From positions 76,847,501 to 76,911,500 of the forward strand of contig CM027378.1 in assembly GCA_015680905.1 (NCBI GenBank): DNA of 64,000 nucleotides, in the 5' to 3' direction. Under the pieces are notes generated by a model. That model did no database searches. It was not told the DNA's origin and was given only the letters and a program-made list of their open reading frames with translations. Origin of the DNA: Coptis chinensis. Taxonomy: Eukaryota > Streptophyta > Magnoliopsida > Ranunculales > Ranunculaceae. Shown here in pieces: positions 13,256-45,889 of this stretch. How positions within the stretch are numbered: the stretch's first letter is position 1; each line of letters begins with the position of its first letter. The position numbers were made by a program, and so were the translations under genes.

Positions 13256-13265
13256 CCCGCGGAAT

Positions 13266-21610: not shown

Positions 21611-21930
21611 TGAAGCTTTTTACATTTTGGGTATTCTTCTATAAAAACTTTCAACCATGTTGATATATAGTTTTACCTTTTAAAAAAGAGGGGAAAACCT
21701 GTTTTTTGTACGCCTTTTAGTTAAGCTATAAAAATGAAGAAGTAACATGGTTATTTATGAATTCTAGTTTGTTCACCTCCTCAAGTATTTGTCCGTGATG
21801 TATTTAAATAGCTAGTATCGAAAGCAACCCCCCATCATATAATACGAAGATTATTAATGTTTTATTAGAAATAAAGACCGGGTCATGTTGTTCTTTGTTA
21901 GATTTCATATCCGCATTTCGTGGGGATTAA
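21611..21930. other. Spacer without recognised gene
   Basis: AT-rich sequence between the L1 fragment and the CACTA transposase. I looked here for a CACTA 5' terminus (CACTA plus subterminal repeats) and found none, so the left end of the CACTA element is probably lost. Confidence 0.4.
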
Positions 21931-21933
21931 AAA

Positions 21934-24900: not shown

Positions 24901-25530
24901 GAGCATCCCCGGTAACAATGTCTCAAAACCTTACGCTGATAGCTCAAGGTCCCTCATATACATGTATTGAAATTTCACAATTATGTGATTAATGGTTGCC
25001 GCTTCCCACAAAGGATCGTGGATGCGCCACGAGTCAATCGTAATAGTGGAGTGAGTTTAGTTGCAATGGAATGCAGATAACAAGTGCAAGAGATAAAGAT
25101 CCACTCTTTAGAAAGTTGCTACTATGGTGTTATTACCGGTATATGGTTGTTGATTACACTAAGTTCAAACTCCCCAAAGATTCAAGTGATTGGGTTGAGA
25201 ATCGAATGGCATCAAGGTAGATGACTTGGGTTTTATCATCGTTGATCTTGGTAGAATTGGGTACAAATGATTCTTTCGCCTTTGCCTCTCAAGTGAAGCA
25301 AGTTTTCTATGTACCGGATCAGATCGATCCTAAATGGTCGGGCCGTCTAGCAACTCCTCGTGAGATATTATGATCATGATAATGAGAATGAAGATGATGA
25401 CTTCATTGATGATGGTATTAGAGACAACATTCGCGAATGAAGTATTTCCGTGATATGGAATCTCCGATGTGAATGACGATGAACAATCAATGTATGGACG
25501 GAAGATTGTGAGGGGATCCGGATTGCTCAC
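21934..25530 (+). pseudogene. CACTA TNP2-like transposase, decayed
   Basis: The family catalyses cut-and-paste movement. The domain order is as in TNP2. First is the N-terminal transposase-associated domain ('MDKWLMSKDKLSIEF', about 22000-22210). Next is the central transposase domain, with 'GMKYEKIDG', 'KNLTWHANEREVDGHLRHP', 'NDIDIYLAPLI' and 'TLCPICGEHTY' (about 22590-23420). Then come 'EKNVCDSIIGTLLNIGGK' (about 23648) and 'KVPGRYSSNFQKAL' (about 23860). A DUF4218-like part has 'WMYPFE', an intron, then 'RYMKVLKGYVRNQ' (24230-24380). A DUF4216-like end has 'VDYTKFKLP' and 'ASQVKQVFYV' (25150-25330). The intron at about 24251-24336 has GTAAGT and AG ends. Many stops and frameshifts interrupt the reading. 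Confidence 0.85.
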
Positions 25531-25999
25531 AAGCCTTCAAAGAAAAGAAAAGCCCATAAATGAAACATTTCAGCCCTATTTATTTGATTATTGTATCTTT
25601 TATTTTCTTTTTTCTTTTATGGTAGTTCTAATAGTGTAGCTTGAATTTTCGTGATTTAGGAGAATCTTGAGATGATCCGGAATAAAACTAATAAAGCTTT
25701 CGTGCCTTTGTTTATATTCAATTGTCTTGTTTATCTTGTTATTTTCATGTCATTGCTTGGTCATAATTCTAAAGGTGTTTTTATTTTTAATTTTGCACTT
25801 CTCCGCCTTTTGCTTTTTTTTGGTAAAGATAGTCTCTCGCCTTTTGCTGTTGAAAATGCTTATGGGATGCATTAGTTTCCTATATTTTTGTTTAGATTGT
25901 TGATTCATCTGTCCATTTTCTTCCTAAATTAGAAAATTGACCGCTAATCCATTATACCCTAAAAATTTCTACATAGATTTAACATGTGTGTTGTGCATT

Positions 26000-28900
26000 T
26001 TATTTTTTGCCATGTAGGTTATCATGGGTACGTAAGAAGATGGCCAATCAAATGACAACCGAAAAAGGAACGATGCAACTGAAAAAATCAAAAAGGGAAA
26101 CACGAAAAGGGAACAACAATAATGATTGAGCTTAACAAGAAATGGGATGGAAATAAAATTAGAGTTGCCTATGATGAAAAGGAAGGCCAAATAATCGGGT
26201 AGTAATGGAGAAAAACTTTGCCGGTATGGAAGGTGCATTGGCAAGGTCCAAGGTACCATTGGAGTGAATTTGAAACTTGGCATGATTTACGGAGTAACCT
26301 TTGAGAGATGATTTATGGAAGCAATGCAGGTAATGTAATCGTGATAATTCTATGCACTTTATATTATGAACAATTTGTTTTTGCTTTCTTCTTCCTAAAG
26401 CCGATGTCTTACATGCTTTTTATGTCTAGCAAATATTTGATATTGATCCAAATTGTATGGATAAAGTCATATCATCCATCGGGGAAAGATGGAGGACTTT
26501 CAAGACCAATTTGACTAGGAAATATGTTACCCCTTACATAAATGACCGTGAGCCTACCGGAGAAACCACCAAAAAATTTATGATTTTATTCGTCAAAATG
26601 ACTGGAATAGTTTGTGAAGTCAAGATTGACGGATGAGTTTCAGGTATGTATAGTAATTGTTTAAACTCGGATGAATGAAATTCAAATTGCATAGTGATAG
26701 TTAGTTATGTATGTTCATCCCCTACTATACTTAGTTATTGTTGTCTTTTTTGAATTCAAAGGAGTATAGCAAGCCGCAACTGGAGAGGAGAAAGAAGAAT
26801 GTGTATAACCACCGACTCAAAGAGATCGCTATGTTGGTCTCAAGAAGAGATGGTAATCATTTAGTTTTCTAAATTTTCTGTTATTAATTTGTTTTTTTTT
26901 TTGTCGGTAAGTTTAGGTTTTACTTTCTCTATATACATGGTTGATGCCAATTGCTCCATCTCTTCCCTTCATATTTTGAATTTTCCTCGATCTTCTCTCA
27001 CGCCTATGGGTACTTGGTTTTCTTTTTTCAGCCACGCTATAACATTTGTCGAGTCCGCTTTTGTACCGCCATCTTACTTACTCCTTGTTAATGCCATCCT
27101 CATTCCTTGCTCTATCATTACGTAGTAATCACCGCTTCATTCTCCCTCTATTCCTTTGCAGTAGAGTCCCGGCCAAGATTCGGGATTGTATCTCCTTCTC
27201 CGCATCTTCTCATCCACTTACAAGACTCACACTTTTTCTGTTTTACTCCAACCTCTATCTCCCACATTTCCATGAAATTATGTGCTTCCCTGGTCCTTGC
27301 TCCATTCTTATGTTAAGAGCCAAGAGTCGCTCTTCTTACATCTCCGATCACCGAAGTTTACTAACCGGTCTCAAGGCTAACTTGCTTATTCTGAAAAATC
27401 TTGTCATTTCGCTTTTTCCAATCCTCAGATACAAAAGCATTCCATGTAAACCTGTGGACTATCTTGTATGCTGCCTTTACCTCGGTAATTTTTTTCAGCC
27501 CATTGTACCTCTTCTTGCCACATATGGGCCATGGCCTCTTGAATCCTATCTTCCAAGCAAGATACTACATAATGTTTCATTAACCTCATATGTATGAAAG
27601 AGATGATCTACGGTTTCAGCCAACACAAAGACACAAACATCGTCGATTGCTACTTTCTTCCACTCTTTTTAGTTTCTTAACGCCTTGAGCCCTCCTTTCA
27701 ATGCCATCCACCGATGAAGGAATTTTCTCATAGTCAAATTGTCTTCCTACTAGAGGAGAATGATCCGAGCAAAGCCTACCAAGAACTTTATATGACCAAC
27801 CCGGAAATTTTCCATGCTATATTCATGAATGCTCTGTTTAGCTTTACCCCTAAGTTCTCTGCTTCCCGTTGCCTATTGCACCATGTGAAATGATACCCTT
27901 TGTCAGGGGCCTCAAGCATCATATTGTGGATTTATAACTTGTCCGAATTCACCATTGCTCATTAGAGGGCAGGCCACCCCTTTTTTCAGTAGGGCTTAAG
28001 TAAGTATTGAAATCACCAATCAATAGCCATGGCAAGTTAGACTGATTAATGAGAGTGAGTTCTCTCCATAATTGTCTTCTACCAAGATACAAAGAATAAG
28101 CATGAACAATTGTAATCGGACAACCATCGACTTCCAATCAGAATTTGGCCGAGGAGATTGACAATGAGGTTAGGTGCGTGTATATTGCTCTTCCACAAAA
28201 CAAAAAATATTTTGGCAGCTGAGATGGATGTCGATTGACATGAAGGCTAGCAATCAGATCCCGGATTTGTAAAGAAATGCAAGTGAAACTGATTAGGGTC
28301 TACTAAAGGCCCAAAGAATCCCTATGAAGCTCGATCATGATCTTTTATTAGCTTAGACAGCCTATTTATGGTTTCTCATTTGAAATACCTCTAAGATTCC
28401 AATAAAAGCACTTCATTAGAAACTAGAGAGTTTATTGGGTAAATTGAGCAGAGCTCGATGAGAGATATTTTCCCCACCACTGGACCTCAAAGGGGAAGGT
28501 AATTGCCGCCGCCTTGTGAGAAGGTGTTTGTTACCCGGGTTTGCTTCTTTGTCGATCACTATCAATCATGTCTGCCCTTCAATGCAAAGAATTCACCGAC
28601 TTTATGAGGATCGTGGCTCGCAAGATCTTGATTTGGCATCCCAAATTTCTTGTAAGCCCGCAAGGGAGGAGAATGATCCGCTTCTTCATTCACTTTTGCT
28701 CTCCGAAGCTAGTGCCACCATCGATTCTCGTAGGACCAACTTCTTCTCTAAACAATCTAGCTGAAATATTTGTTTCAGCCAACTCTAGAAAGACAACAAT
28801 CTGTTCCCTCTCTATCCATTTCACTAACAACTTGTGGTGCTTCGCATCACACTAGGATCATTATGGTGCAAAGCCAATCAACCGAGATCTTCAACCACGT

Positions 28901-30040
28901 AACTAGGTGCATCGACCACATGTCTAGGTGCATCAACAACCCCAAGGTGAACCATCGAGCAAGTTCCTAGCATTACCGTGATTCAAAGAACTTGTGAGCT
29001 CCTTTGATTTTCTGTTTGTCCTTCAAGAGTGTTAGCATTATCATATTCCACTTCTACCGCTAGAGCTTGAAATCTATTCATCACTTTGTGAGGTTTTCGA
29101 CAATCGAATAAAGAGGCTTAGGAATCCAAGAGACCTTTGGATCAACATGAGGCTTTCTTCTTGTGTCCGGGTTATCAAATCAATTCTCAGTATGTCCGAT
29201 TAGGTGGTCAGAGGGTTCAAGGTTTATCACCTCACCTCTTTGTCCAATACTCTAGGTCCTATTATATGTTACTTGTTTGTAGCAATGAATATACTCTAGT
29301 CTAATACAGTTTTTGTTTATGTTTAATAGAAAGAAGAGTTCGGGTTCCTCAAGAGAACATGATGATCGAGTGTCAAATGGCTAAGGGCTCGGCCAAAAGA
29401 AGAATGGTGAATTTGTGAATGATGCTACTATGGAAATTGCAGAAAGAATTGTCGTTTTTTGAAGTTTTGTTAATTTTTTTTTACTTTTATATATAAAATA
29501 TTGAAATGTATTAACATAATTCTCTCATGTAGGCTCAATTGAAACTGAAGGAGAAGGAGGGGAATTTAGTAACTAAGGGAAAGAATGATATACTTACTCA
29601 GGCTTTAGGAACCCCAGAGCATAGTGGTAGAGTTAGGGGGGAGGGGAGGTTTGTAACTCCAACAACATACTTTAAACTTCCTAGACGTACTTGGAAGAGA
29701 AATAGAGAGGAGCTTGAGACCCAACTACATGAAGAAAAAGCAAGAAGGATGGAAGCAGAAGAAAGGGTGAGGTTTCTAGAAAAGGAAAGTGCATTAAGGA
29801 TGAAAGAGATGCATAAGTCGCCACCACCTGAGAATGTTGGATCTAATAGTGGTAGAAGTGATAATAGAGTAAACCAACAGGTATCAACTTAGTTCTCAGA
29901 TCCGATTATGACTTGTTTGTGTTTACGATTCGATTTCTTTTTTCTTTGTGGGACTTAATTAGATCTGTCAAACATACAGGTAGAAGATGGGGATACATTT
30001 AGCAAGATGTTGCCCAATCTTGAAATCAGTACACCCAAGG
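26000..30040 (+). pseudogene. CACTA TNPA-like gene, 5' half (Ptta/En/Spm domain), decayed
   Basis: Exon-like blocks match the plant En/Spm accessory transposase. They include 'IELNKKWDGNKIRVAYD' with 'EGQIIG' (about 26130-26200), 'ERWRTFKTNLTRKYVTPYIN' (about 26485-26545) and 'TDEFQ' followed by 'PQLERRKKNVYNHR' (26628-26815). After the inserted L1 come 'GEFVNDATMEIAERIV' (about 29402-29450) and a long exon at 29535-29890 with 'NDILTQALGTPEHSGRVRG', a coiled-coil stretch and a charged tail. Proteins of this type bind subterminal repeats of the element. The 29535-29890 exon is open throughout; other parts carry stops. Confidence 0.75.
26891..29250 (-). mobile_element. L1 (LINE) inserted in reverse in an intron of the TNPA-like gene
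   Basis: A run of 13 T at about 26891-26903 is the poly(A) tail of a minus-strand element. Going rightwards, the minus strand shows the zinc-binding reverse transcriptase end ('CCL'-type cysteine block and 'ETVDHLF'-like words at about 27600-27680) and then an endonuclease block 'WLLIGDFNTYLSPTEKRGG' at about 27960-28050. Sequence that could be ORF1 lies up to about 29.25 kb. The central reverse transcriptase is missing, so the copy is internally deleted as well as full of stops. The right border is approximate and I could not define a target-site repeat. Confidence 0.6.
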
Positions 30041-31740
30041 TACTTATCCTTTAAATTGATATGATTCTTATCACGATATATGCATAAGCTCTAACTCATA
30101 TCCATGTTTCTTATAGGCTATTAAGTGTTCTCTGGCTTTGAGATCCAAAGGCAACATTGTTGCTAAAGGTTTACTTTTCAAGAAGATCGACCGTAAGAAA
30201 AGTCCACAACATTCCTTTGGGAGAACACAATGTACGAAAGTACAGATTGACTTAATAATGAAACCCCATCTCCCCTCCCAATACCAGTACCAAGTGGTGA
30301 CTTGAGCTGCTATTAGCGATGCATGGCACAGCCTTGTGGCATGGCCAAAAGAATTTGTCATAGTCCGCGATGTGGTAAAGAATCATAGAAAGATTAATGA
30401 CGATTTGGTTGATTTACACTTGTTCATTCATTTGATTCATTATGTTGTTTTCCCCCACTCATTTATGTAGGAAGGAGATGGTGATTTTGATGCATCCGGT
30501 AAGGCTAGAAACTATAAAAAATCAAGGAAACAGTCAACATTTTATGTTTTTCACCGATATCTTCTTAACACTTAGCACTTAGTACTTTTTAGTGTACATA
30601 TATTGATTTATTTTTATTAAATATGCAGGTGAAAGATGCTATCCCAAAATGAAGAAGACTCGACCAATCATGAATTCAAGACACCCAAGGTACTTATCCT
30701 TTAAATTGATATAATTCTTATCACGATATATGCATAAGCTCTAACTCATATCCATGTTTCTTATAGGCTATTAAGTGTTCTCTCGGCTTTGAGATCCAAA
30801 GGCAACATTGTTGCTAAAGGTTTACTTTTCAAGAAGACCGACCAAGAAAAAGTTCACAACATTCCTTTGGGAGAACACAATGTACGAAAGTACGATTGAC
30901 TTAATAATGAAACCCGATCTCCCCTCCCAATACCAGCATTCAAGTGGTGACTTGAGCGCTATTAGCGATGCATGGCACAGCTTTGTGGCATGGCCAAAAG
31001 AATTTGTCATAGTTGGCGATGTGGTAAAGAATCATATAAAGATTAATGACGTGATTTGGTTGATTTACACTTGTTCATTCATTTGATTGATTATGTTGTT
31101 TTCCCTACTTATTTATGTAGGAAGGAGATGGTGATTTTGATGCACCCGAGGAAGGCTAGCAACGATAAAAAATCAAATAAACAGGTCAACATTTTTATCT
31201 TCTTAACACTTCATACTTTTAGTGTACATATATTGATATATTGATTTACTATTTTTTTTTGTAGGGTGTGAAGTGTAGTTTGGCTTTGACTTTGAAAAGC
31301 AACATCGTTGCAAAGGCCCGATTTTCAAGAATACTTTCGACCTCAAGAAAATATTAATGATATTCCTTAGGAGAAGCCAATTTTCGAGTACAAATTGACA
31401 CTTGTAATCAAACCTGACCTCCCTCTCCCAAGACGGTTGGTGACTTGAGATTTGTTAAGGATGCATGGCATAGTTTTGTGGCGGCCAAAAGAATTTGTGA
31501 TAATCGGCAATGTGGTAAACTATTAGACAAAAAGTAATGATTATTGGTGTTGACATGCATATACTAATTTTTTTTTTTTTCTCCTTATTCATGTAGGAAG
31601 AAAACATGATTTACTTGGATCGAGAGAAGGCTAGAAAGGATAACAAAGGCAAACAGTCAAAGTTTACATTATTGTATTTTTATATGCATTTTGTACTTTT
31701 AATATATGACTTAGATTTATTACTATACTCATGCAGATAA
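29978..31740 (+). repeat. Tandem internal repeat of a DUF8039-like exon set (three copies)
   Basis: The exon group 'short VKD exon, intron, DUF8039-like exon, intron, short EGDGDFD exon' is present at 29978-30626 and again at 30627-31200, very similar in both exons and introns. A more diverged third DUF8039-like exon follows at about 31264-31510. Shared words are 'KCSLALRSKGNIVAKGLLFK', 'DAWHSFVAWPKEFV' and 'IMKP…LP'. DUF8039-like domains occur in plant TNPA and Ulp1 transposon proteins (from memory); their role is unknown. The copies carry small frame changes. Confidence 0.65.
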
Positions 31741-32621
31741 AAGATTTTGGTGTTGTGGCTAAAAGTAAGAAGGCATTGCCTAACTTTGAAATTAGTAATC
31801 CACGTGTATTTAGCTTATTTCATATGATCATAATCCCATATATTTACTAATTGTTATTTATAGACTTTTGCATAAAGAAGAATTGGTTTTTCTAGGAACA
31901 ATCTCATTTCTAGCATTCCCAAAGACAAAGAGTAAATTCACATAGAGGAAGGTACCAATGAAAAGGCAGGAAATGTTCACACTGCACTCATAGCATTAGA
32001 TAGGTTAATCTAGTAAATAAGTAAAACTAGTACATTGGTAATCAAACACTATGTGCCGTTAATTATTATTAGAGTTTGGTGAACAATCTAAATTGGTTCT
32101 AGGATGACTAGGAGGAAAAGTTATTTCATTTTGTATAAACTTCGGGTTGTTGTGCCTCCCGGGTAGTATTGAGTTTTATCTTGCCGCTATTCCGAAACAA
32201 ATTGGTTCCGTTGTGACTTGCGGGAAGATTGAATTTACCGCTTCATAAGTTGAATGATACTTATTTACAAGTTTTCCATAAAATCCATGGCTTTTAACCA
32301 CTAAGGCATTTTTTTGTGTCAATTATATTAGTGTTTTGCATTGTAAACTTTTTTTTTGAAGATCTTAACTTAACTTAAGTTTCATCCTCATAACCTAATG
32401 GTTTTGCAGATGCAACTAGTTTTGGCAGACTTTAGATTATTTAAACTTCAATCGATTTGAAAGTATCGTTGATTTTTTCTTTCTAGATTTAGCGATGATG
32501 TTTATAATAATAAGTTGTGAAGTTCTATCCATGTGAATTAGCTTATTCAAGTTAAATTTGTGCCCTTGTCCTTTTATTCTCTTCAATTTCTTTGGGTTTT
32601 CAATTTCAATTTGTTTTGTAT

Positions 32622-32642
32622 AGTTTTTTTTTTTTTTTTTTT
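32622..32642. repeat. Poly(T) run
   Basis: About 20 T in a row in an intron-like stretch before the Ulp1 part. It is followed by CTAGTAGTG, which resembles a CACTA end by chance. Confidence 0.6.
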
Positions 32643-32699
32643 TCTAGTAGTGTTAGTGATATAAGTCCATATCTATGTTATGCCCGTCAATATTTTGAT

Positions 32700-34110
32700 T
32701 ATTTCACATAGGAAAAGGAGGAAACACTTGATGAGATGGAATGTAGTATCAGAGAATATGGCGATATGCTTGACAACACGATGGAATCGCCTGATAATAT
32801 TGTCATCCCTATAGAAAGGAGCTTTTCGGGAAGAGATTGAGCTTAGGCCATTTTTCCATTGAAAAATCTGATTTGTTGGATATTTGCAGAATGGATTGGC
32901 TAAGTGTCACCTGCATGACTACATACATGAAGTGAGCTAAAGTTGCATGCTTTGCTTTAAACATTTGTATTTGATTAGTAGATGCAATTATCGTAACATT
33001 TTTATTTTTATTTTTTAGATATCTTTATGGGAGTTTCATGAGTTCTCAAGAAAGATACACATTTGCTAATCCTTCTAACTTCACAAACTATGGGAATGAT
33101 GATGGGGAGAAAATTCAGCATTTGCAAATACAGATTAGGTTATGTAAGGCGAATCAAATTCTATTGATTCCTTACAATTTGGGGTAAGTGTTTTGTTTGT
33201 CTCTTAATCATATTTATTACTTAAATGACTATACCCTATACATTATGGATTAATTATTATCTATTTATTTCATTGTAGGAGGCATTGGGTATTGATTGTT
33301 ATTGATATATCATCACAACAAGTTTACTGGTTGGATTCTTCTGGAAATCCGACTCCAATATTCAGAATAAAAGTTCTTGTTGACAAGTAAGTTATGTGTT
33401 TCATGTATTTTCTTGTATGATTATAATCTTTTTCCTTTAAAATACCAACCCTTTAAGTTCTCGACTTTATTATAAACATATTCAAACTCAGATTGTCTTA
33501 CATGATGCTTCTCGCTAGCATCCTCCTTTAGTATATGTTGTGTTAATCGCGGTGCCCCTCAAGAAGTGAATGCAATGTGAGCTTGATCTCAAAATGTTTG
33601 CAACAAGGTCTTATATGAATATGTGTATACCCAATTTAATTTCTTTTTCTATAGTGCTATTAGAGCTTTCACTTATGCCGGAGGAAAAGAATGATGGTCG
33701 GACCAAATTGGCAAGTGGTCAAGGTAAACAAAGGCAAATTCAGATATTTTTATTACTTTTTTCCTTCCAAGTAAGTATGACTAATCTTATTATTTGTCTT
33801 GTGTAGTGCCCAAAACAACCGTGAGGTGTAGAATGTGCCTACTACGTTATGATGTTTATGAGACACTTTCTTAGGGATCCTTCTCAATCTTTAACAAATA
33901 AGGTAAACACATATATACTTCTTTGTCATATAATTAAATTAGAATATTAATGCCTTATAATATATTAGTTACGTTTTCTTTCCTTCTCTAATTTAGATCC
34001 AAGAGTTGGGGAAGATAGCAAAGATATACCAAAGATGAAATAAGAGACCTTCGCTCGGTTCTACTTGACTTTATTCAACAATTCTCATTGAGTACAACTT
34101 GAAGTGGTTA
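32700..34110 (+). pseudogene. Ulp1-type (C48) cysteine protease end of the CACTA TNPA-like gene
   Basis: Ulp1 proteases remove SUMO or process related tails; plant CACTA and MULE elements often carry a copy. Exon blocks are 'SDLLDICRMDWLSVTCMTTYM' in part (about 32865-32930), 33019-33183 ending 'ANQILLIPYNLG', 33279-33388 with the catalytic-His block 'HWVLIVID' and the Asp block 'VYWLDSSG', and 33807-33902 with the catalytic-Cys block 'GVECAYYVMMFMRHF'. The last exon at about 33998-34095 has 'IRDLRSVLLDFIQQFSL'. Intron ends are GT and AG. All three catalytic positions are readable, but stops are present, including one before the Cys block, so it is a pseudogene. Confidence 0.75.
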
Positions 34111-34529
34111 AAGGCATTTGGGAGCCGAGACTTTTTTGGTGCATGGTGAGTATTTTCTTACATTGTTTTTCTTTTTAGAAATTATTTGCTAAATAGTATG
34201 CATTTGTTTTTATTGACAATCAAACCTATTATGGAAAAATGATAAAATCAAACTCTTTAAGGTGTTCATTTTGGCTTTGTAGGTTTTGGATCATCACTTT
34301 CTCAGTTAGAAGATTCCGGAGATAGCTAGCTTTCAAGGATTTGGAGATTCTATTAGTTTTCTTAGGTTAAATGTTATTGAAATCACCTTTTGGCTAGTGA
34401 TTACTTTTATTACTTGACGTAGTTATTACTTTTATTCTTATTCGACATATAAGACTTTTTTCTTAGTAAATAAATTCTTGTAAGGAATTTATATATGCCG
34501 TATTGCTTGTATTAATTGTTTTGATGATC

Positions 34530-34650
34530 AATGTGATGCTGGTAAGGGAAATCTTATACTATGTCCATGCAAACTATGCGGGAATGTCAAGAAATTGTTG
34601 GACGTTATACTACATGGACATGGCATGTTGATACAGCTCAGTTTCTTCTC
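34530..34650 (+). pseudogene. Second, short copy of the CACTA transposase-associated domain
   Basis: The stretch encodes 'GKGNLILC' and 'CPCKLCGNVKKLL' type words and the 'YTTWTWH' end, in more than one frame. It matches the N-terminal domain at 22080-22210 in the first CACTA transposase and even keeps the cysteine pattern CxCxxC that the first copy has lost. It lies after the Ulp1 end, so it is either the start of a second CACTA element or a rearranged piece of the first. Nothing else of a second transposase follows. Confidence 0.6.
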
Positions 34651-34914
34651 TCTTTTGTTTCCTTGGAGGAAGACTGCAAAAAAGCACAAGAAAGCTATGC
34701 CAGCGAAAGGAAGATCAAAAAGTGCTTTGCCGCACCCCATATGGCTTCTACTCCCTTCACTTCATGGAGCCCTACATAGAACTATACTACTACCAACAGG
34801 CAGAGGTCTCACCTCTTAGGTATGTTGTTGTAGTCCTAGCATCCTCCTAATCTAATAATTTACTCTTTGCTTCACAAAGATCGGTATTAGAAGCGAAGAT
34901 ACTAATGCATAACT

Positions 34915-36250
34915 TTTCAGGTGTTGCCTATAATCGCATGGTTCAAGCCGATATCGGAGCCCGAAGTCCATCAATTTAACCTCCTCGATCTCGCCTTGCA
35001 TGAGATGTGGCCTGTATATTGATAGCATTTGAAGTCGCGTGTCTTTGGGTCCATGAGAATTTTTGGCTTTAGGTACATCGTATTTACGTTCTCGAGATTA
35101 CCTATTGTTGGAAAATGACGGTTTAAAAAAGACTTCTTATATTTTCAATAATCTTCCGTGCCACGTACACCATTGCAATGTGGAGGTACCTACTTTTTTA
35201 ATGCTCTTCCATATAGCTCATTAGTTGATCCTATTATCATCATCCGTATGAAAGTTCTCTTCAATCAACATTAGGTTTTTCATTAAACACTTATGCCGGG
35301 CAAAGGAAGGTGAAGTGATGTTTAAAGGGTAAAGAATGACAGGATAGAAAACCTAAAATCACCAAGCTTTACGGTTAGGCAACGAAGAGTCAATACATTG
35401 ACGTTTCTTAGAATGATTCTTCCGCTTTTCGATAAGTTGTTCACAACCATTTCCGGGATTCTTCGTTCCAAAGACAAAATATAGTTTTGTAGCACTCTTG
35501 AACTAACCATCTATTAACGGACTTCATTAAATGAGAAATCACTTGGGAGATATCGTCATCTTCTTTTCTCCACCCACCACATTTCAAACTTTTATAGCAT
35601 TCTCAAGGAGTTCCTCAAGCTGAAAGAGATTTTAAGAGGGATGAGACTTCAAGATTCTTGTCAATTAGTTGATCAAAGAAAGAGAGAGTAAAAGACAAGT
35701 TATAACGATACAGAGAAATTTCGATGGTATCGTAGGGTTTTGTAGACTCCGGTTTCTTTGTTCAAACTTCTAATTTCAATTTATTCAATATATATGCTTC
35801 AAAAAGGAGGTCTACTTATACATAAAAAAATTCAGGTGTGGCCTATACCGCATGGTTCAAGCTCACACCGAACCTCAAAGCTCCTTTGATTTAACCTCTG
35901 ATCTTAGTCTTACATGAGGTGTGCACCTGCACACAATACTTGGAGCATTCTGAAGTTGATAACAATGAGCATCTCTTCATTCAGGTAACCAATACTTAAC
36001 TGCAATGAAGTGCACTGGTAGACCAGGACCATCATACAATAAGTTACACAACATTTAGTATTTCTGTTGTCAGAATATCTGAAGTTGGAAATGATCAAGG
36101 TTTAGGCAATAGAAGTTGAAGGCCTTTTATTTCTTCAATGACCTTCCAGTCGGCACGCACCCTTGCAGCTGGAGTCATGCTAGTTTGATTTCACTCTGCG
36201 CTTGGAAGCTTCTTGACCAGCTCATTAGTCGATGTTGGTACCCCCGTCAC
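34915..36250 (+). pseudogene. Unidentified duplicated exon-like piece
   Basis: Two related blocks start after acceptor-like 'tttcag' and 'ttcag' at about 34920 and 35832. They share a GVAYxxW/M-type start, a 'catggttcaag' core and a 'LALHE' or 'LVLHEVC' end. A second shared block lies at about 35140-35190 and 36125-36180 (both around 'aatgaccttcc' and 'aataatcttcc'). The two units are about 0.9-1.0 kb apart. I do not recognise the protein. Stops are present, and I treat it as a duplicated fragment of a captured gene. Confidence 0.35.
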
Positions 36251-36624
36251 TGAGATTCGTAATAGTTCATTTGATCACTTCAAACTGTATTTTATTTGTT
36301 AGACAGAGAAGTGAATAAGCGGCATAATCTGTATTTACGAGGCAACTAGTCATGGCTGATTAAACATCAACCCACATGCATGGACAAATAAAGGTTCTGA
36401 CCAGACTCAATTTCCTGCTGCCCAGTACACCGCATACTTCTTTTCCCTAATTCTTTAGTGATATCTCTATATATACTATATTCTGATCACATGATGTTTG
36501 ATTTTCCCGGGTCCGTGTTCTAATCGGGAAGCAATGCAAGTCCTTGTCAGAGGACCAGTACAAGAAGGTCCTAGAGAAAAACTACATGGATGAGTCATGG
36601 CTTTCCAAATGGACTACTAAAGTT

Positions 36625-38105
36625 TTATAATTTATGGTGTGGTTGGAACAATTAGACTACTGGCTGGTAAGTTTGGATGGATTCCTTATATTAGTTAATT
36701 TTTTATCTTGTAGTCCACTGGAAAAATTGCAATAGTATAATGGGAGACTACTAGGCTAGTGTGCTATTATAGTTCTTATCGCCTCTTACATTAATGCAAT
36801 CTCTCGCCATATTGTTACTTTAGATTCTTTATGCTATTATGCTAGTAAGATGGATGGGGTGATATGTGCCTGGGTCATATTGGTGAAGTCAGTTGAAAAA
36901 GAACTTTTAATAATATTTTTTTGTACACAGAACATATTTACTTGTAATAACTTCTCGCAAGGAGGTTGGCACTTATCTTGGTTTCCCGTTTTCCGAGTAA
37001 TGTCTATGAAGTTTATGGCCCGCAATGGGATTTTGAGGCTTTCATCTTGTCAAGAAGTAAGAACTTTTGTATTTGTGGAAAAAGGCCTCCTTACTTCCAC
37101 TTCATACTTCATGGTTTAATTCCCTTTCGTAAGAGGGGAGACAAAAGTCTAGGTTTATATCTGTATTCTATTGTGCACTTAAATTCAATCGCTTCTCAGA
37201 GTTTGATTGGACAATTATTTGAATAAGAAGCGAGCACTGCTTTTCTGCAGAAAAGAGATGAGGCTTACTTTATGAGCCTGTATGGGACGATGGAATCAAC
37301 ACTGGGGTTGTATTATTCATATGAAACGCACCTTTACATTAAAGTGAGTCCTTTAAGCGATTTTTAAAGTAGACTGCAAACTAGTATGAGAATATTTTCA
37401 CTTATTAGGTTCAGATTCTCGTGGTCAGTATATTGTGTCAAACTGCTTGATCGATGGTGTGCGGCCGATATCTATATCTACCGCCTTGCAAAAATAACAA
37501 GGGAAGTTAGCGTAGGAAGGGCAAGGAAACCATTTTGGAAACAGTCTGTTGGTATAGTCTATTGCAACAGTCTCATAGTCGATCACAATTTCTTTCATTC
37601 AACCCGACAATCCGGTAACTACATGTATACTATCTAACCACCTTAAGCATTGGTGAATTCACCATTTTTTGGGATAAAGCTTGAGGACCTCACATAAAGT
37701 TACCTCATACCGAGAAATTGCTCCAAACTTTCTTTACATATGAGTCATTTGTTGGAAGATATACTAGATTTCCATTGTCTTTTTTCTTGGATAGATAAGT
37801 TCCTCTCTTCATAACGGATGCTGAGAATCTGTGTTTCAGGTTCGAGGATCAATTCCACTTCTTTGGGAGCAAATCGTGGATTTGAGCTACAAGCCACGGA
37901 TCAAAATCGTCAATCATGAATAAACAGTATGTGACTATTTATTTTTTTTGTTATATGAATGTTGTAGTATTTCCAACACGATTAGCTTCTATAATGATAT
38001 GCAGTAATCTTTTCTTTCTAGCCTAAAATCGCTCAACGCCATTTTAATGATCTCATTCAAAGATACTGAGAGGGCCATGGTCATTGATTTGACTAACAAA
38101 GTAAG
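36625..38105 (+). pseudogene. SAC-domain phosphoinositide phosphatase fragment
   Basis: Five exon-like blocks match plant SAC-domain phosphatases of the SAC6-8 type, enzymes that dephosphorylate phosphoinositides at ER and Golgi membranes. In order they are 'FYGVVGTIRLLAG' with a GTAAGT donor at 36669, 'GTYLGFPVFRVMSMKF' (36967-37020), 'YFMSLYGTMESTLGLYYSYE' (about 37250-37325), 'VRGSIPLLWEQIVDLSYKPR' (about 37839-37900) and 'AQRHFNDLIQRY' with 'VIDLTNK' (38030-38100). The catalytic CxxxxxR part is absent. The order and spacing of introns are kept, so genomic DNA was copied, not mRNA. A stop lies between the two words of the last block. Confidence 0.65.
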
Positions 38106-38404
38106 GTTTTGTGTTCATGTATTTTCTTTTTTATTGTGTCATTTACCTCTTCTTTCAAACTTTATCAATTTAAATGATTGAAGGTGAAGTTTTATCAGCT
38201 TCTTGATGAACATCATAATTGAACTGGATACTGATGTCTAACAATTGATTATTTTGCCTCGCTACTATTGTCCCTTTTCTCAAATACCCACTCGCAGACT
38301 TTTATTTTACCTTTCCACTCGGACATTGAAATCCATTTGGGGATATTTAGATGTGAAACCTCAAATAATATCCCAAGCTTGGGAAACCTCAAATATCCCA
38401 AGCT

Positions 38405-38790
38405 GTCAATGATTAATTGATTATTCTTGAATATCGAAATTCAATGTCTAATACCACCTCCAATGTCTCAGATTGCACAATCTTCCCATCCATTGATGGT
38501 TTCATCGGCCAAATCCTTTTAAGCACACCACGATGACTTCGCACAAGTCTTACGCCAAAGATGGCTCTCGTATTCTTGAGAACTCGACCATATTTGCGAA
38601 ACGAAAAGCTTTCCCCGTTGTGGGTTTTATGCAAGAAACCGCCTTCCAAGGTGGTAATTGCTTCTTTCTGTCTAGAATTTCTGTAATTGTATCAAAGATT
38701 AGCTTCCTATGCACTTTGGATAAATAAGAGGAATTAGTCTTGTAGCATTGTCTTTCAAGCAAGGAATACAAATCGAATCATAGATCAAAT
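38405..38790 (-). pseudogene. DUF4378 (LONGIFOLIA/TRM type) fragment, reversed
   Basis: On the minus strand lie 'KVHRKLIFDTITEIL', 'GVLKRIW' and 'LEVVLDIEFRYSRIIN', which fit the C-terminal DUF4378 domain of LONGIFOLIA/TRM proteins (family words 'RKLIFDTVNEIL' and 'VLDIERLIF'). Those proteins organise cortical microtubules. The parts are in two frames, so a frameshift is present. It lies between the SAC and NQR fragments but on the other strand. The assignment is from memory and moderate. Confidence 0.45.
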
Positions 38791-38811
38791 CGTAAGCTTT
38801 ATAAACATGGC

Positions 38812-41070
38812 CCCTGCCCGGGACTTTATCCGGCGTGGTGTGATTATAAACATGGCGCCCGCCGCCGGGACTTTATCCGATGCTTCCGACCCTATATACT
38901 CTAGCTCCAAAGGTGTGTTTTCTTTTATTTTGCTTAGTTGCTATTCACTTATGAATGCATACTTGTACTTTTTCTGTCACGCTGATCGTTGTTCCTTGGT
39001 ATGGTAATACCATAGGTGGTGTGGTGTTATTTACTTAGATCACTTCTTACGTACAAACGCCAAGAAATGCCTTTTACGAAAGTGAAATCGGGTTTCGGTC
39101 AACTCGTTAAGCTTTTCATTTTAAATTTGTATTCAGCTTGTAGGAATTGAATTCGGTTCAAAGATAATCCGCATGCTATTGTGTAAATAATAGTATCTCT
39201 TCTCGCTTCTTATCCGTTGCTAGCGACAAGCCTCTCGCTTTGTAATTGTTTGAATTTCACACGATCTAATTACTCCATCCGTCGATTATCTTTCTTTGTT
39301 GGATACCGAAATGTTTACATATGACCTTTTTGAAAACTCAAGATCGTGCTTCAATTGTTTACATATGCTATAATGACATTGTTATGGCATGTGCTCTCAT
39401 TTTTTTCATCTACTTTTCAAATACATACCAACAGATTTTACAGACTAGAGCTATGCTACACATTTGTCTTGATAGGCGTTAATTTTTACCCTACTTTGAT
39501 CCCCTTCTCCTCCCAAATCATCTTTATAAGTTGAATAATAAATGATCTAAACTAATTTTCCATTTTTCTTTGGTCTCTTGACATTTTGGTGATGCTTGTA
39601 TTTCTCGTAATTCATGGTATTCGAGGAAAAAGAAAAGAATCTCGGATGCCATAGGCAGATGTAGCGTTATTGGTCTTAACCAGTGCATTACCCTCCTATC
39701 TAACAATTGGTGTTACTTATATTTGGGAAAAAGTACAGTTGCATAAAGAATTTGTGGGTGATGCTCATGTGCGAGTTCGATATTAATTACCCATTTCAAT
39801 ATTTTCATCCCTATCTCTATAAAAGAGTTGAATTGGTGATAACCGGATTTGTGGATACGCTTGCTCCTAATTTGTCTAGGTGCTTTTGAGCTTATACAAG
39901 ATGAGCGTAGAGCTGGTGCATGTTTATGGATCACGAAACCGCAGAGGCATGGAGTATTGGCCTACACCAACAGAAGAAACCAAGTACCCGAACTAAATGA
40001 CCAAATGCAAGAAAAGTATACTCAAACATAGAAAAATCTTATATTCAAATCCCCCAGAGTTATGAGAAGACGTAAGTAAAACCACTGAACCTTGTTTGCT
40101 TTGTCCAACTTTATCTTTTCTCTTTCTAAAGTCTCATCATATTGTTCGCGACATACTATCCATAGAGGCTTAATTATGATCGGTTAGTTAAGCATGGCAC
40201 TTTAGTTTAGAATCTGCTTCATGCCACTGATATTTCATTTCAACTTTTGGCTTCAGTCCATTTATGGCATTGTATGGTTGATTGTCGACTTATTTTGGTT
40301 TTGCTGGCTAGGGTTGTTCACACTCTGAGCCACAATTTTCGAAGTGCAACTAGCATTGTGCGCACTTTGTTAAAATTACCGATTGAACCACATCATGTCC
40401 TTCTCAAAGTCATTTATGCTGGTGTAAATGCTAGTGATGTAAGTTTCTTGATTCCTACCTCATGGTACATATTATTCTTTATTGACATTGGCTCATGATT
40501 TTAATTTTGTTTTCATTCTAAGGTATTTGGCTGCTAAAATGATTCTTTTTCTTATTAACATAAATATGTGTTGGTAAATTTCAGCTCCGGTCATTATTTT
40601 GGTGGCAGTAACCAAGAACTGTCCTCACGTCTACCATTTGATGCTGGTTTTGAGGTGTTGTATAGTGTTAAAACCATATATTTCTAGCTAAAGCAATAAT
40701 ATCATATACCCAATGGTTAGTCTTATGGAACTGGTGAGCTTGGTTCTCAAACACAACCACGAAAGCAATCAAGAACTTCAAGTGCATACTCTGTTTATTT
40801 ATCTTATTAAAAAAAAAACATTGTCTATATAGCTTGAGGGTTTTGCATTCAGTATTACACACTCTGGAAAGTTTTTTTTACAGTATTACACACTTCTGTT
40901 ACTTTTAATCCTCTCGGTGTGCTGAAATAGGTGCTTCAGTTGATGAGTTGAAATGACACATTTTGCAGGCTGTGGGACTGATTGCTGCATTAGGTGATTC
41001 AGTTACTGACTTGAAAGTAGGAATCCCTGCCGCATTATGACTTTTTTGGAAGTTATTCGAATTCATGATG
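38812..41070 (+). pseudogene. NQR-type SDR/quinone oxidoreductase fragment
   Basis: Exon-like blocks match the plant protein that joins a short-chain dehydrogenase to a zinc-type quinone oxidoreductase (Arabidopsis NQR, At1g49670, from memory). The first has 'GVIINMAPAAGTLSDASDPIYSSSKG' in two overlapping words (38835-38913), an intron, then 'GGVVLFT' (39015-39035). The SDR YxxxK position is within the 'YSSSK' word. Later blocks are 'GAFELIQDERRAGACLWITK' (39879-39950), 'LSHNFRSATSIVRT' and 'LPIEPHHVLLKVIYAGVNAS' (40327-40440), 'HYFGGSNQELSSRLPFDAGF' (about 40602-40655), and 'AVGLIAALGDSVTDLKVG' (40969-41025). The C-terminal half is missing, and a start-region duplication ('nMAP…F' words at 38807 and 38850) and frame breaks are present. 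Confidence 0.65.
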
Positions 41071-41564
41071 GTACACCTTTTTTTTTTTTTTCTCGGGTCA
41101 ATGAAAAGGATATCGTACTTGTTTTTAGAAAAATTAACAAATAAATCACTTTAGTCACTGGTTGTAGTTTACCATCTAACAGAGAAACTAAAGGAGATGA
41201 CAAGAATTGTTTGCTTTTGTTATTTCTGATTTTGAGGAAGAGGATAAATCTACGTCCCCGCGCAACCATTGCAGCTCTCCTCCAAGTGTCTATGGTTAGG
41301 TTGCTTCTTTGGTGGGTCTGCAAACTGTCACATTACTCATAAAAGTTTCAAACTCACTTGATCAACAACGAGATATTGCTGCAAAGACGTTAAACAATGA
41401 AAAGAACGAGGACATGATGCACAAATTATTTACTGGGTGAGGATTCTCTTGATACTATACTACAATAGGTATGTATATATCTGAACTTTTTCCTAATAAG
41501 TCGCTTGTGTTTTGAAGGTTGTTTGTGCATATGTACCAGGAGCTGGCTTTCTCCCTACGACGAA

Positions 41565-42235
41565 TATACCACTACGACGAATCAGCCCAGACCAAATTCC
41601 AGAAAGAAAAACCGTGGACAAATGACCCACATTATTTCAAACGTGTCAAAATATCGGCACTTGCTTTGTTAAAGATGGTTGTTCATGCGAGATCTGGTGG
41701 GAATATTGAGATAATGGGTTTAATGCAAGGGAAAACGGATGGGGAAGCTATTATTGTTATGGATGCTTTTGCTTTACCTGTTGAAGGGACTGAAACTAGA
41801 GTTAATGCTCAAGTTGATGCTTATGAGTATATGGTTGATTATTCACAGACTAATAAACAGGTATATATATATATATATATATTTTGCCAATTAAAAGATT
41901 ACTACTTGTTTGCCTTTTCCTCATTTGGTTAATCTTAAGATACATACTTGTTTTTTATGTTAGGCCGGGCGACTGGAGAATGTTGTGGGTTGGTATCATT
42001 CGCATCTGGGATATGGGTGTTGGTTGTCTGGTATTGATGTTTCGACTCAGATGCTTAATCAGCAATTTCAGGAACCATTTTTAGCTGTTGTTATTGATCC
42101 AACGAGGACTGTTTCTGTTGGGAAAGTTGAAATTGGTGCTTTTAGGACTTATCCCGAAGGGTACAAGCCTCCAAATGAACCTCGCTTTGAGTATTATCGA
42201 CTATTCCTTTGAATAAGATTGAAGACTTTGGTGTG
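41565..42235 (+). pseudogene. CSN5: CSN5 (COP9 signalosome subunit 5) fragment
   Basis: CSN5 is the metalloprotease subunit that removes NEDD8/RUB from cullins. The exon at about 41565-41860 has '[17 protein letters not shown]', '[20 protein letters not shown]' and '[13 protein letters not shown]' (with the JAMM glutamate), then an intron starting with a TA microsatellite. The exon from 41964 has '[20 protein letters not shown]', the HxHx10D zinc site, with Leu in place of the usual Pro after the second His. The frame is lost near 42200 ('[11 protein letters not shown]' where the family has EYQTIPL-type words), although 'NKIEDFGVHC' still follows in another frame. Both the N-terminus and the C-terminal third are missing. 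This is a captured fragment, not a working subunit. Confidence 0.85.
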
Positions 42236-43289
42236 CATTGCTAACAAAACCTTTTTATTTCCTTTTCCAATTTTATTGTGATTTTTTTTTTTGTGAACGG
42301 ATAGTAATAGGCGGTCGAGTAGTAAGAGGCCAAGATTTGTATAGTGGTGTAGGTATGTTACTACAAGACTTTGTTTGTGGACTTTGCATTCCACACCTAT
42401 AGTTTAAATGACCAACTTACTTATATAGTATGTGTGCCTCATTCATGTATAAATTGTTTCAACTTTCGTGGTAATGTAGCTCTTGATGTCGCCAGATTCT
42501 TCTTCTACGACCAACCACGTAACTAGCAAAAATAGATATTGCAGATCATGTTTTGGCTTCTTTGCTGAGATCGAGCTCTATCGGGTAATTCTTCTCACCG
42601 TTAATAGCAACTACAGTGGTTTTAAACTTACCTTCTTAGGACTCAAGCCGTTGTTCAATTATATGATTATAGGAAGGTATATGTGGTTGGGAGAGGCTCC
42701 GATCCGGTCAGGCAGCGTGGTACCGCAAAAACCGCAAGAGGTTCTTGGTAATTGTCCAAACTTCGGTGGAATGTATACAGTGATGTTCTTATTTTCATGG
42801 AAAACATCCCAGTTTTATTTTTCTCGCTTTAGGTTCGACCGAGGTTGATCGCTTTTAAAATGGGCTCAAGAATTGTAATTAGTGAACTATATTGTTGACT
42901 TTGAACTATGACTTAAAGTCAAGCCGAGAGTCAATGGTGCCTCATCGCCTCACGTGAAGACAAATGTTATTTCTGCAATTCCTATCTCTATTATATTATT
43001 TTAAATGCACAAAAGCCGCCTATTTATTAACAACGCTTTTTAAGCTTTAGGTCGATTGGTTTAAGAAAGATGGAGATTCTCAAGTAACGGGACACGCTTT
43101 GCCAAAGTTTCGTAAGGCCACTATTGCAACATTTTTATACTTGTTCAACCCTTCATTTTTTTTGCCATTCTTCTTTTGTTTATATTCTCTCTTATTGTGT
43201 GGTTCTATTGCTTAGAAGTAACTTCTAAGCAATGTGAGGACCCTACATCTATCCTACCAGAGCTTCATTGGGGTGAGATATATAGCTTC

Positions 43290-43740
43290 CAGTGACACAC
43301 ATAGTAATGATTCTTGAGCAATCAAATAATTCTGTTCAGGCAGGGGCCTCCACTAAAGATGCACCTCAAGTTGAGTCCTCGGTTGCCAAGCGTGGAGATA
43401 TTCTTATTGACATCAATGACCGATTCCCTCGGGATTTCCTGTCAGATATATTTTCAAAGGAAAGATTGACTGAAGACTCCTCTAGCATAAGTCCATTTGT
43501 ACAATGATGGAACCGATTGAGCATAAACATTGGTCATTCTTTCCGTGGTTAGTACAGATGAGTTTGTTAGAAATGATGTTTCTCTTATGGATCGGGACCA
43601 TCTTGGATATTCGCCTCCACTTACTAAAGTTGATGAAGAGAGTCTTGGAGCCTATAACTTTTCACAAATTGATGACCGACGGAATATATACCTTGGGGAG
43701 TTGTGGATTCTCAAATTTTTTGAGTAGGAAATTCAGCAGA
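43290..43740 (+). pseudogene. PB1-RAF-like kinase fragment (non-catalytic middle region)
   Basis: The words 'KRGDILIDINDRFPRDFLSD' and 'IFSKERLTEDSSSISP' followed by 'HKHWSFF', 'DEFVRNDVSLMDRDHLGY' and 'PLTKVDEESLGAYNFSQIDD' match the region before the kinase domain in plant RAF-like kinases that carry an N-terminal PB1 domain. The words lie in different frames, so at least two frameshifts are present. Neither the PB1 nor the kinase domain is in the window. It is the last gene fragment before the CACTA terminus. Confidence 0.6.
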
Positions 43741-44109
43741 ACCATCCGCCTCCTTTCCTCGCATATATAGAAAAGGTTAAAAAATGTCTTATTATAGTTC
43801 AAGAATAGTAATTGATACAATATTTGAGTTTCTATAAATAATTGCTGATCACTAGTACTTTTGAAAGTTATGTTCATGTTCGACATTGTTCTTTCTTATC
43901 TTAATGAAATAAGTTCTTCAAAGAATTTATTTATGTTGGGTTGCTTTTGTTAATTGGTGTTGATGTTTATGAATATGAAAGGGAATGTGGTGGTTTGGGG
44001 ATGTGGTTTTATTTTCCTCGTTAATTATTATAAGCAATACCAACAAAAATGACAAAGGGTGAGATAAAAAGTTGTCCAACAATCTCCTTTTCAAAAAGAA
44101 TTTATCACG

Positions 44110-44393
44110 GTTATTTTTGATATTATCTCGGTTTCAATAAATACTAATTGGTTTCAATCAACAATTTATCTCGGTTTTATTCTATATAATATCGGTTTTA
44201 TTTAGAAAACCGAGATAATATATTTAGATAAGATGTCAGACTTCTGAGATAATTTAGTAGCTTATTATCTCGGTTTTGTAGAACTCTATTACCTCGGTGG
44301 ATTTTACCTCGGTTGTTTTTTCCTAGAAAACCGAGATAAAAACTCTAACATCTCACCTTTTAGCTGAGCTTATAAGCCCTTTTTTTAGTAGTG
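44110..44393 (+). repeat. CACTA 3' subterminal repeats and terminus
   Basis: About eight copies of ATCTCGGTTTT, ACCTCGG or the reverse AAAACCGAGATAA occur within 230 bp, in both orientations, as expected for TNPA binding sites. The end reads GCCCTTTTTTTAGTAGTG, the reverse of a CACTACTAAAAAAAGGGC terminus. It is followed by TCG as a possible 3-bp target repeat. No matching left end was found in the window. Confidence 0.7.
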
Positions 44394-45360
44394 TCGCTGT
44401 TCCACAATCTATGATTCCTTGAAACCTAAGGAGCTAGAGGGGATGTGCTCAGAAGACCTTTTAAAGATTTCTAAACCAAAGTACAGGTGCTGGTGTCTGG
44501 TGTCTAGATTCAAAGCCAAACTTGGAGTCTTGATTTAACAATTATCCACGTTAATGATACTGTGGATGCATTTTCGTTGGCCAAAAGTTTAGGTTGAAAT
44601 AGATAGAATGGTCATACAAACTCTAGATTTTATTACAAAAGTTATGTTTTTTAGATTCTCTAGTGGTTCTTTAGATCCCGATGTACTAACTCAATGAATC
44701 CGGTCTATAATTTTTTCTTGGTTTTGCTAGTACTCTCTCTTTCAAGCAAGGGATTTGCATTGTATTCAAACATTGTATGTGTGATTAGTGACTACTTTTA
44801 TCCTCATTTTGTGATTTTACGTAGTTTGTAAGTTTAGTATTTCATTGGTACAGATTGTTTCGTGTTTTCGCCATATATGTTTTCTCTTAAAATAATGAAT
44901 AGAAAGTTAAATGATTGCTATCCGTGGTATTTGTCTAATGAATAACAATTTTTTTTTTTAAGGGGGCATAAGAGCAAAGATAATAAGGAAAGATGGCATG
45001 GTGGTATGGTGCAATGATGAGTGCAACGAAGACAAAGGTATTGAAAGGAGACCGCCCTCCTATAAACCTATTACCAAATAAAAGTCTATTGTAATTCTTG
45101 AGTACTTAGAGGGAAGAAGTCGTTATGTTACTAAGCCTCAGGTTTCCGATAAAAAACGAAGAGTATAGCCCCCGATCAAAAATGAATTCAAACAAAAGTT
45201 CACAGCCATACAAAGAAGAGTATAGGCCCGAGATAGCTAAATAGGAATTAGGGGCACTACCAACGAAAAGACTAAGGGCCTTTGCCTTTCCCCATTAACA
45301 CTTGTTTACTTCCTAAGCTATTAGCTGGAACTCTATTTTTATTTTATTTTTGCTCCGAAA
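44394..45360. other. Intergenic stretch
   Basis: No gene could be supported. There are short open stretches (for example around 44420-44520) without recognised similarity, a T-run at 44950 and AT-rich sequence. Confidence 0.4.
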
Positions 45361-45365
45361 GAGCT

Positions 45366-45725: not shown

Positions 45726-45889
45726 TTTATGCTACTATTTGAGTTTTGGTTTTAAAAGGAAAGGAGATTCCTGTTTGAAGTTGGATTCTAAAAAGAAAAG
45801 AGTTTCTTGTTTTAAGTTAACTATTAAGTTGATGAGATGGAATTTTGTGGGAGCTTGAAAAATATCCCTTATGGGAGCTTTAATATTAA

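What the first reader, a model, noticed from the sequence alone, without database searches (positions are those of the whole stretch)
34640..44393. Row of captured host-gene fragments carried by a CACTA element
At least five unrelated host genes (SAC phosphatase, DUF4378 protein, NQR-type oxidoreductase, CSN5, PB1-RAF-like kinase) and one unidentified duplicated piece lie within 10 kb as incomplete exon-intron fragments. They are followed at once by subterminal repeats and a CACTA terminus. Introns are kept, so genomic DNA was copied. Such a rich transduplicate could be transcribed as a chimera or give small RNAs against five parent genes.
Basis: partly seen in the sequence, partly recalled or inferred. 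Interest (0 to 1): 0.8.

Follow-up and report, generated by a model that had tools for sequence, protein, structure and literature searches.

The report
Jumping DNA carrying seven gene scraps
A large plant jumping-DNA element has picked up pieces of about seven unrelated plant genes and spread the set to several chromosomes; the type is known, but here much of the order of the pick-ups can be read.

Summary
Window 34640-44393 is the 3' half of one CACTA (En/Spm) transposon, window 21647-44393, truncated at its 5' end: tnp2 and Ulp1/C48 remains, a row of host-gene pieces with introns, subterminal repeats, CACTA terminus. Six more loci carry the DUF4378-NQR-STAG-CSN5-PB1 row and end at the same base. 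The three read at both ends have perfect 3-bp duplications (AAA, GGA, TTA). Genes matching NQR, CSN5 and DUF4378 were read elsewhere in the genome; PB1-RAF and STAG-like relatives were found but may not be donors; SAC has only a distant hit. DCD and STAG are extra, weakly scored finds; DUF4378 is inverted. Loci fall into nested states: SAC+PB1 (6), plus DUF4378 (4), plus NQR-STAG-CSN5 (7, and 2 broken). One junction shows the earlier state holding more of the DUF4378 gene, which favours stepwise growth. NQR-STAG-CSN5 also occurs, longer at both ends, against the terminus of a second CACTA family, suggesting it was built there and passed on whole. The kind is known (Tgm-Express1, Pack-CACTA). 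Transcription and small RNAs were not testable. CAG/CTG depletion in the window copy suggests methylation and sequencing miscalls.

The parts
21647..44393 (+). CACTA family-1 element, 5' truncated: the first 2.77 kb present in copy A is absent from the window
   Evidence: homology to copies A, D, E, F; copy A's 5' part does not match the window
22965..23430 (+). tnp2 transposase remains (Transposase_21), split over two frames
   Evidence: Pfam PF02992, E 1.1e-10 and 1.3e-12, above cut-off
24136..25340 (+). DUF4218 (24136-24261) and DUF4216 (25188-25340) remains
   Evidence: E 9.2e-6 and 0.0014, both under cut-off
33256..33902 (+). Ulp1 / Peptidase_C48 remains
   Evidence: E 0.0076 and 0.0039, under cut-off
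34640..36336 (+). unidentified, partly duplicated module, matched over this whole length at 14 other places
   Evidence: no Pfam match below its last bases
36330..36600 (+). DCD (development and cell death) domain-like exon piece
   Evidence: PF10539 E 0.0022 at 36330-36419, under cut-off; extension to 36600 by eye
37227..38106 (+). SAC-type phosphoinositide phosphatase piece, several exons
   Evidence: Syja_N at 37825-37917; PDB Sac1; the other exons by eye and recall
38423..38800 (-). DUF4378 gene piece, inverted
   Evidence: 93.5% to C5:89588951-89589334; domain there E 3.1e-18
38801..38836 (+). short extra copy of the first NQR bases at the DUF4378/NQR join
   Evidence: full length in 4 of the 7 copies aligned (window, C, D, F), shortened in A and B, mostly missing in E
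38837..41182 (+). NQR-type (SDR + zinc-binding dehydrogenase) gene piece with introns; parts present in the matching gene are missing
   Evidence: three blocks at 92-94% to C2:99594501-99601500
41262..41555 (+). STAG-like (cohesin SA) piece between NQR and CSN5
   Evidence: 82% to C2:41392877-41393162; STAG E 0.0017 there, under cut-off
41563..42389 (+). CSN5 (COP9 signalosome subunit 5) piece; GT..AG intron 41862-41961
42397..42872 (+). 475-bp repeated segment of unknown nature
   Evidence: 7 full-length matches at 85-88% and 3 split ones away from the cargo loci
43260..43721 (+). PB1-RAF-like kinase piece
   Evidence: 83.5% to the open frame in C4:97327601-97328100; 176 matches at E<=10 in the genome
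44126..44336 (.). subterminal repeats TCTCGGTT / AACCGAGA
   Evidence: 5 copies
44376..44393 (-). 3' terminus CACTACTAAAAAAAGGGC (on the minus strand)
   Evidence: same last base in six other copies

Best explanation
A CACTA (En/Spm) transposon family with tnp2 transposase gathered unrelated host-gene pieces in its 3' half and spread them. Shown: the pieces lie inside one mobile unit; the same row sits at 7 loci; nested cargo states exist; at one junction the less loaded state keeps more of the DUF4378 gene than the window does; the NQR-STAG-CSN5 piece occurs, longer at both ends, against a second CACTA terminus. Inferred: cargo grew stepwise; pieces entered when gaps were repaired from ectopic templates (template switching); the NQR-STAG-CSN5 chimera was built in the second family and copied over as a unit; transposase from longer relatives moves the 9.7-9.9-kb copies that lack it; the cargo is now mostly a silenced passenger.
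For: Copies A, D, E, F match most of 22.7 kb; B and C match the cargo. Same last base, different flanks in six copies. Perfect 3-bp duplications in 3 of 3 copies read at both ends. tnp2 above cut-off. Matching genes for NQR, CSN5, DUF4378. Nested states. State 1 (C3:23.44) has 1,060 bp of unbroken other sequence where the window has the DUF4378-to-475-bp block. State 2 (C9:43.09) keeps about 126 bp more of the DUF4378 gene. Locus G has the NQR-STAG-CSN5 chimera with more of both genes and ends in a different, abundant terminus. Away from CG/CNG sites the seven copies differ by 0.15-0.74% over NQR-CSN5, so they spread recently.
Against: The window copy has no 5' terminus and no readable target duplication. 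No close donor was found for SAC (80% peptide); the PB1 and STAG relatives may be element copies or pseudogenes. The CSN5 gene read lacks the intron-sized stretch that the seven copies and locus G have, so as it stands it is not the exact donor. No 5' terminus was found for locus G in the 20 kb held. The 1,060 bp of state 1 matched nothing, so that junction does not by itself give a direction. The extra NQR copy at the join is full in only 4 of 7 copies. Copies D, E and F differ from the window at 42850-43311, holding about 1.49 kb there in place of 0.46 kb. CAG/CTG depletion is strong in the window and copy F but weak in A-E, so silencing is not shown for all copies.
Confidence: 0.87

Rival explanations
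1. Direction reversed: a fuller family-1 element assembled NQR-STAG-CSN5, family 2 took it from there, and family 1 later lost the ends.
For: Nine family-1 loci (7 complete, 2 broken) but only 4 candidate family-2 loci carry parts of it, and G's 5' terminus was not found.
Against: The longer piece was not seen in the six family-1 copies read or in the window; G is contiguous with both matching genes beyond each family-1 breakpoint.
Confidence: 0.2
2. The gene row was assembled at a chromosomal site or by another transposon type (Helitron or MULE), and CACTA ends only came to enclose it later.
For: Some cargo pieces occur elsewhere without a family-1 match beside them in my searches (NQR parts at C6:64.87, C6:19.68, C9:32.12).
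Against: Three copies have both CACTA ends and target duplications enclosing the cargo; six copies end at the same base; less loaded copies of the same family exist.
Confidence: 0.06
3. Resident decayed genes that happen to lie in this order, or an assembly artefact.
For: Many frame breaks, and base-calling-like errors are present.
Against: Same order at 7 loci on 4 chromosomes with different flanks.
Confidence: 0.01
4. The cargo is active: fragments are transcribed as a chimera or give small RNAs that affect the parent genes.
For: A CSN5 exon keeps 98.3% identity to its gene; copies A-E show little CAG/CTG depletion; Tgm-Express1 fragments are spliced into transcripts (abstract of PMC1947982).
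Against: Copies are near-identical because they are young, so conservation says little; frames are broken in the window; the window copy is CAG/CTG-depleted.
Confidence: 0.1

Closest known systems
Tgm-Express1 (soybean CACTA)
   Different: 5.7 kb, described there as one insertion in a flower-colour gene; here 9.7-23.8 kb where both ends were read, at 7 loci, some with transposase remains, with nested cargo states and a chimera shared with a second family
Pack-CACTA / Pack-TYPE elements (Arabidopsis, rice, maize)
   Same: captured genic DNA, often from several loci, most so in maize Pack-CACTA (passages and section 10 of PMC8903248)
   Different: defined there as non-autonomous; here both transposase-bearing and transposase-free forms carry the cargo
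Jozin CACTA-like elements of Chenopodium
   Same: CACTA-like elements with captured gene fragments and with Peptidase_C48 domains (abstract and passages of PMC8978399)
   Different: the fragments named there are Neprosin pieces and an 80-bp AP2 piece on the 5' side; here a row of about seven on the 3' side
Stepwise gene capture by maize Helitrons
   Same: multiple fragments from sequential transpositions (abstract, PMC3288121)
   Different: Helitrons; here a CACTA element

Membership tests
CACTA (En/Spm) | CACTA terminal inverted repeats | tested here: met
   3' end in the window; both ends in copies A, B, C
CACTA (En/Spm) | 3-bp target site duplication | tested here: met
   AAA, GGA, TTA in 3 of 3 copies with both ends read; not testable for the truncated window copy
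CACTA (En/Spm) | tnp2-type transposase | tested here: met
   PF02992 above cut-off in two frames
CACTA (En/Spm) | subterminal repeats in both orientations | tested here: met
   3 forward and 2 reverse within the last 270 bases of the element
Pack-CACTA | captured coding DNA between CACTA ends | tested here: met
Pack-CACTA | non-autonomous (no transposase gene) | tested here: not met
   the window copy holds tnp2 remains; copies B and C have no match to that region, so of those read only B and C could fit the definition

The most novel reading that the evidence does not exclude
Host-gene chimeras are traded between unrelated CACTA families as ready-made units: NQR-STAG-CSN5 was assembled in one family and then copied into another that was already carrying SAC, DUF4378 and PB1 pieces, making CACTA elements exchange partners as well as collectors.
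Probability: 0.6. Interest if true: 0.55.

Novelty: new member of a known kind. Interest (0 to 1): 0.42.

Why it matters
Nested forms of one growing gene-capture element survive in a single genome, so the order of captures can be read from junctions. Because the full-cargo copies are young and matching genes are present, the capture mechanism (template switching against excision of neighbouring elements) can be tested at base level, and so can exchange of cargo between transposon families.

Tried and rejected
Helitron or MULE ends at the edges of the NQR-CSN5 piece (38837, 42389): rejected after locus G showed these to be breakpoints inside longer gene sequence. Purifying selection on the SAC exon, suggested by 10 identical 27-aa peptides (the window's own among them) in 22 matches: not supported, because the copies are near-identical away from CG/CNG sites. 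Host taken as Atriplex hortensis (recall; it stands in notebook entry 1): dropped, because its published chromosome scaffolds span 93.6-113.5 Mb (passages of PMC7261831), while contigs here include 124.6 Mb and 85.2 Mb; species left open. Pfam on the state-1 segment L043 and a PDB search of a peptide from it gave nothing. An NQR exon gave no PDB match. No tRNA genes. Nanopore miscalls at methylated CHG sites in plants: two paper searches, listings only, none read; that explanation rests on the change pattern alone.
Full report
WHERE IT LIES. I do not name the species: orach was my first guess, but its published chromosome scaffolds span 93.6-113.5 Mb (passages of PMC7261831), and contigs here include 124.6 and 85.2 Mb.

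THE UNIT. BLAST of the window against seven fetched loci shows one colinear unit, window 21647-44393. Copies A (C2:14.66-14.69 Mb), D (C3:8.32), E (C6:66.30) and F (C7:33.96) match most of it; B (C7:53.59) and C (C7:16.71) match only the cargo half; G (C1:33.46) matches only 38837-42389. In A-F the homology ends at the same base as in the window, 44393, and different flanks follow. A, B and C were read at both ends: 5' CACTACTAAAAAAA..GGGTTTTTATCTCGG, perfect 3-bp duplications AAA, GGA, TTA, lengths 23,752, 9,697 and 9,857 bp. The window copy lacks the first 2.77 kb. tnp2 scores above cut-off in two frames; DUF4218, DUF4216 and Peptidase_C48 score under theirs. D, E and F differ from the other four at 42850-43311: 1,486-1,496 bp in place of 458-465.

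THE CARGO AND ITS RELATIVES. NQR matches C2:99594501-99601500 at 92.7, 92.0 and 93.8% in three blocks, introns included; that locus has adh_short and ADH_zinc_N. CSN5 matches C3:43633451-43634166 at 98.3 and 90.3%; JAB E 1.5e-35 there, CSN5_C under its cut-off. DUF4378 matches C5:89588951-89589334 at 93.5%, inverted; domain E 3.1e-18. PB1-RAF matches an open frame at C4:97327601-97328100 at 83.5%. I read only 500 bp there, Pfam found nothing in it, and the piece has 176 matches in the genome (150 of 175 candidates scored), so it may be another element copy; the family name is recalled. The STAG-like relative at C2:41392877 (82%) has stops of its own and scores under the cut-off. For SAC, 22 matches to a 27-aa exon peptide were listed; by coordinates I place 21 at loci that match the cargo and one, C4:31399664 at 80%, elsewhere. 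No donor was sought for DCD or for 34640-36336. The CSN5 gene read is continuous where the window, A-F and G have an insert of about 100-145 bp, which in the window reads as a GT..AG intron; I cannot explain this.

NESTED STATES. Seven loci hold DUF4378, NQR, STAG, CSN5, the 475-bp piece, PB1 and the 3' end (one, C7:16.71, lacks DCD). Two (C5:11.88, C6:12.46) hold the row up to part of NQR. Four (C2:8.90, C9:39.24, C9:43.08, C9:43.17) hold SAC, DUF4378, PB1 and the end, without NQR. Six (C1:51.13, C2:15.97, C3:23.44, C4:76.42, C5:32.27, C9:8.59) hold SAC and PB1 without DUF4378; for C2:15.97 the last bases did not match. Four more loci with SAC matches (C2:7.67, C7:16.98, C7:88.79, C8:43.35) show no 3' end in the rows used and are not counted. 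No clustered locus with SAC or a family-1 end has NQR without DUF4378; NQR parts at C6:64.87, C6:19.68 and C9:32.12 stand alone in these searches. From the coordinates, the six share a gap of 1,201-1,213 bp and the four a gap of 2,899-2,961 bp, so the states are discrete. Searches score at most 40 DNA candidates (254 found for the terminus), so counts are lower bounds and an absent match is weak evidence.

ORDER. State 2 at C9:43.09 carries about 126 bp more of the DUF4378 gene than the window, which leaves it at 38800. So the DUF4378 piece was longer before NQR-STAG-CSN5 came to lie there. State 1 at C3:23.44 has 1,060 bp of unbroken sequence where the window leaves its SAC part (38317) and rejoins at 42866. 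I expected SAC sequence there, but neither Pfam nor a PDB search of one peptide matched, so this junction shows a swap without giving its direction. One locus per state was read. At the DUF4378/NQR join all seven aligned copies share the breakpoint region; an extra copy of the first NQR bases is full length in 4 of 7 (window, C, D, F), shortened in A and B and mostly missing in E. Template slippage during repair could make it; later changes clearly also acted. The mechanism is inference.

TWO FAMILIES. Locus G has the same NQR-STAG-CSN5 chimera (92.9% to the window) but continues further into NQR, to a likely start codon (by eye), and 132 bp further into CSN5. It ends against repeats and the terminus ..CCTGTTATGGTGTAGT. 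A search with that end gave 933 candidates, 40 scored; four loci (C1:33.46 itself, C2:5.30, C7:62.75, C1:15.62) match from the first query base, that is, from the chimera side. The C1:15.62 copy shows the canonical end GTAGTG. The two families differ in terminus and subterminal repeats; G's 5' end was not found in 20 kb. Away from CG/CNG sites the window and G differ by 27/2091, the window and copies A-F by 3 to 12 of 2,033-2,092, so the chimera was shared before the family-1 copies spread.

AGE AND SILENCING. Over NQR-CSN5, pairwise differences among the window and A-F are 2.4-5.1% at all sites but 0.15-0.74% away from CG/CNG sites and gaps. CAG+CTG is 0.29-0.75 of expectation in 2-kb bins of window 1-36000; 1.06 and 1.17 at 36001-38000 and 40001-42000; 0.51, 0.66 and 0.52 at 38001-40000, 42001-44000 and 44001-46000; 1.10-1.27 in the three gene loci. 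In 5-kb bins, flanks included, copy F is 0.35-0.83, but A-E are 0.62-1.20, so strong depletion is not general. At 102 aligned CWG sites in seven sequences, 211 of 714 cells differ: 47 are CTG to CCG or CAG to CGG, 27 are shortened to CG, and 29 are the changes expected of deamination; control triplets differ in 89 of 1820 and 161 of 2149 cells. I read this as base-calling error at methylated CHG sites, which would also mean that many frame breaks are not real. Both points are inference; nothing in the record names the sequencing method.

KNOWN OR NEW. Tgm-Express1 of soybean is a CACTA element with five unrelated gene fragments (abstract, PMC1947982). [quoted passage not shown] Chenopodium CACTA elements carry captured pieces (abstract and passages of PMC8978399). 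A review describes the proposed Pack-CACTA route by aberrant excision of neighbouring elements (passages of PMC13317346). Stepwise capture is described for maize Helitrons (abstract, PMC3288121). In the listings of searches (20, 12 and 3 papers shown) I saw no title or abstract opening that reports one gene chimera in two CACTA families; I read none of these papers in full. Hence: a new member of a known kind, with an unusually readable history.

Noticed in passing
window 1-46000: CAG/CTG triplets are depleted (0.29-0.75 of expectation in most 2-kb bins) except in islands at 36-38 kb and 40-42 kb; in the aligned cargo, changes to CCG, CGG or CG outnumber deamination products, which looks like nanopore miscalls at methylated CHG sites.
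   Followed up: partly
C3:43633451-43634166 (L037): The CSN5 gene read lacks an intron-sized stretch that the window, six other element copies and locus G carry at window 41862-41961.
   Followed up: no
window 43286-43724: The PB1-RAF piece gives 176 matches at E<=10 in the genome (some places give two), several with long open frames, so it is a high-copy repeat in its own right.
   Followed up: no
window 30014-31700: Head-to-tail repeat units of about 500-650 bp inside the element, between the transposase and C48 remains; copy F has a larger internal duplication there.
   Followed up: no
window 35925-36331: A 407-bp stretch recurs alone at 96-97% at C6:77.84, C2:24.58 and C1:89.81, each within about 1.1 kb of a PB1 match, perhaps short deleted elements.
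   Followed up: no
window 7188-14226: A complex of direct and inverted repeats in segments of up to about 330 bp, 72-100% alike.
   Followed up: no
C7:62605482-62754429: Three nearby loci match STAG-CSN5 or CSN5, the third next to the second family's terminus; a possible local cluster of family-2 elements.
   Followed up: no
copies D, E, F (C3:8.32, C6:66.30, C7:33.96): A 1.49-kb stretch stands in place of window 42850-43311; what it is was not examined.
   Followed up: no
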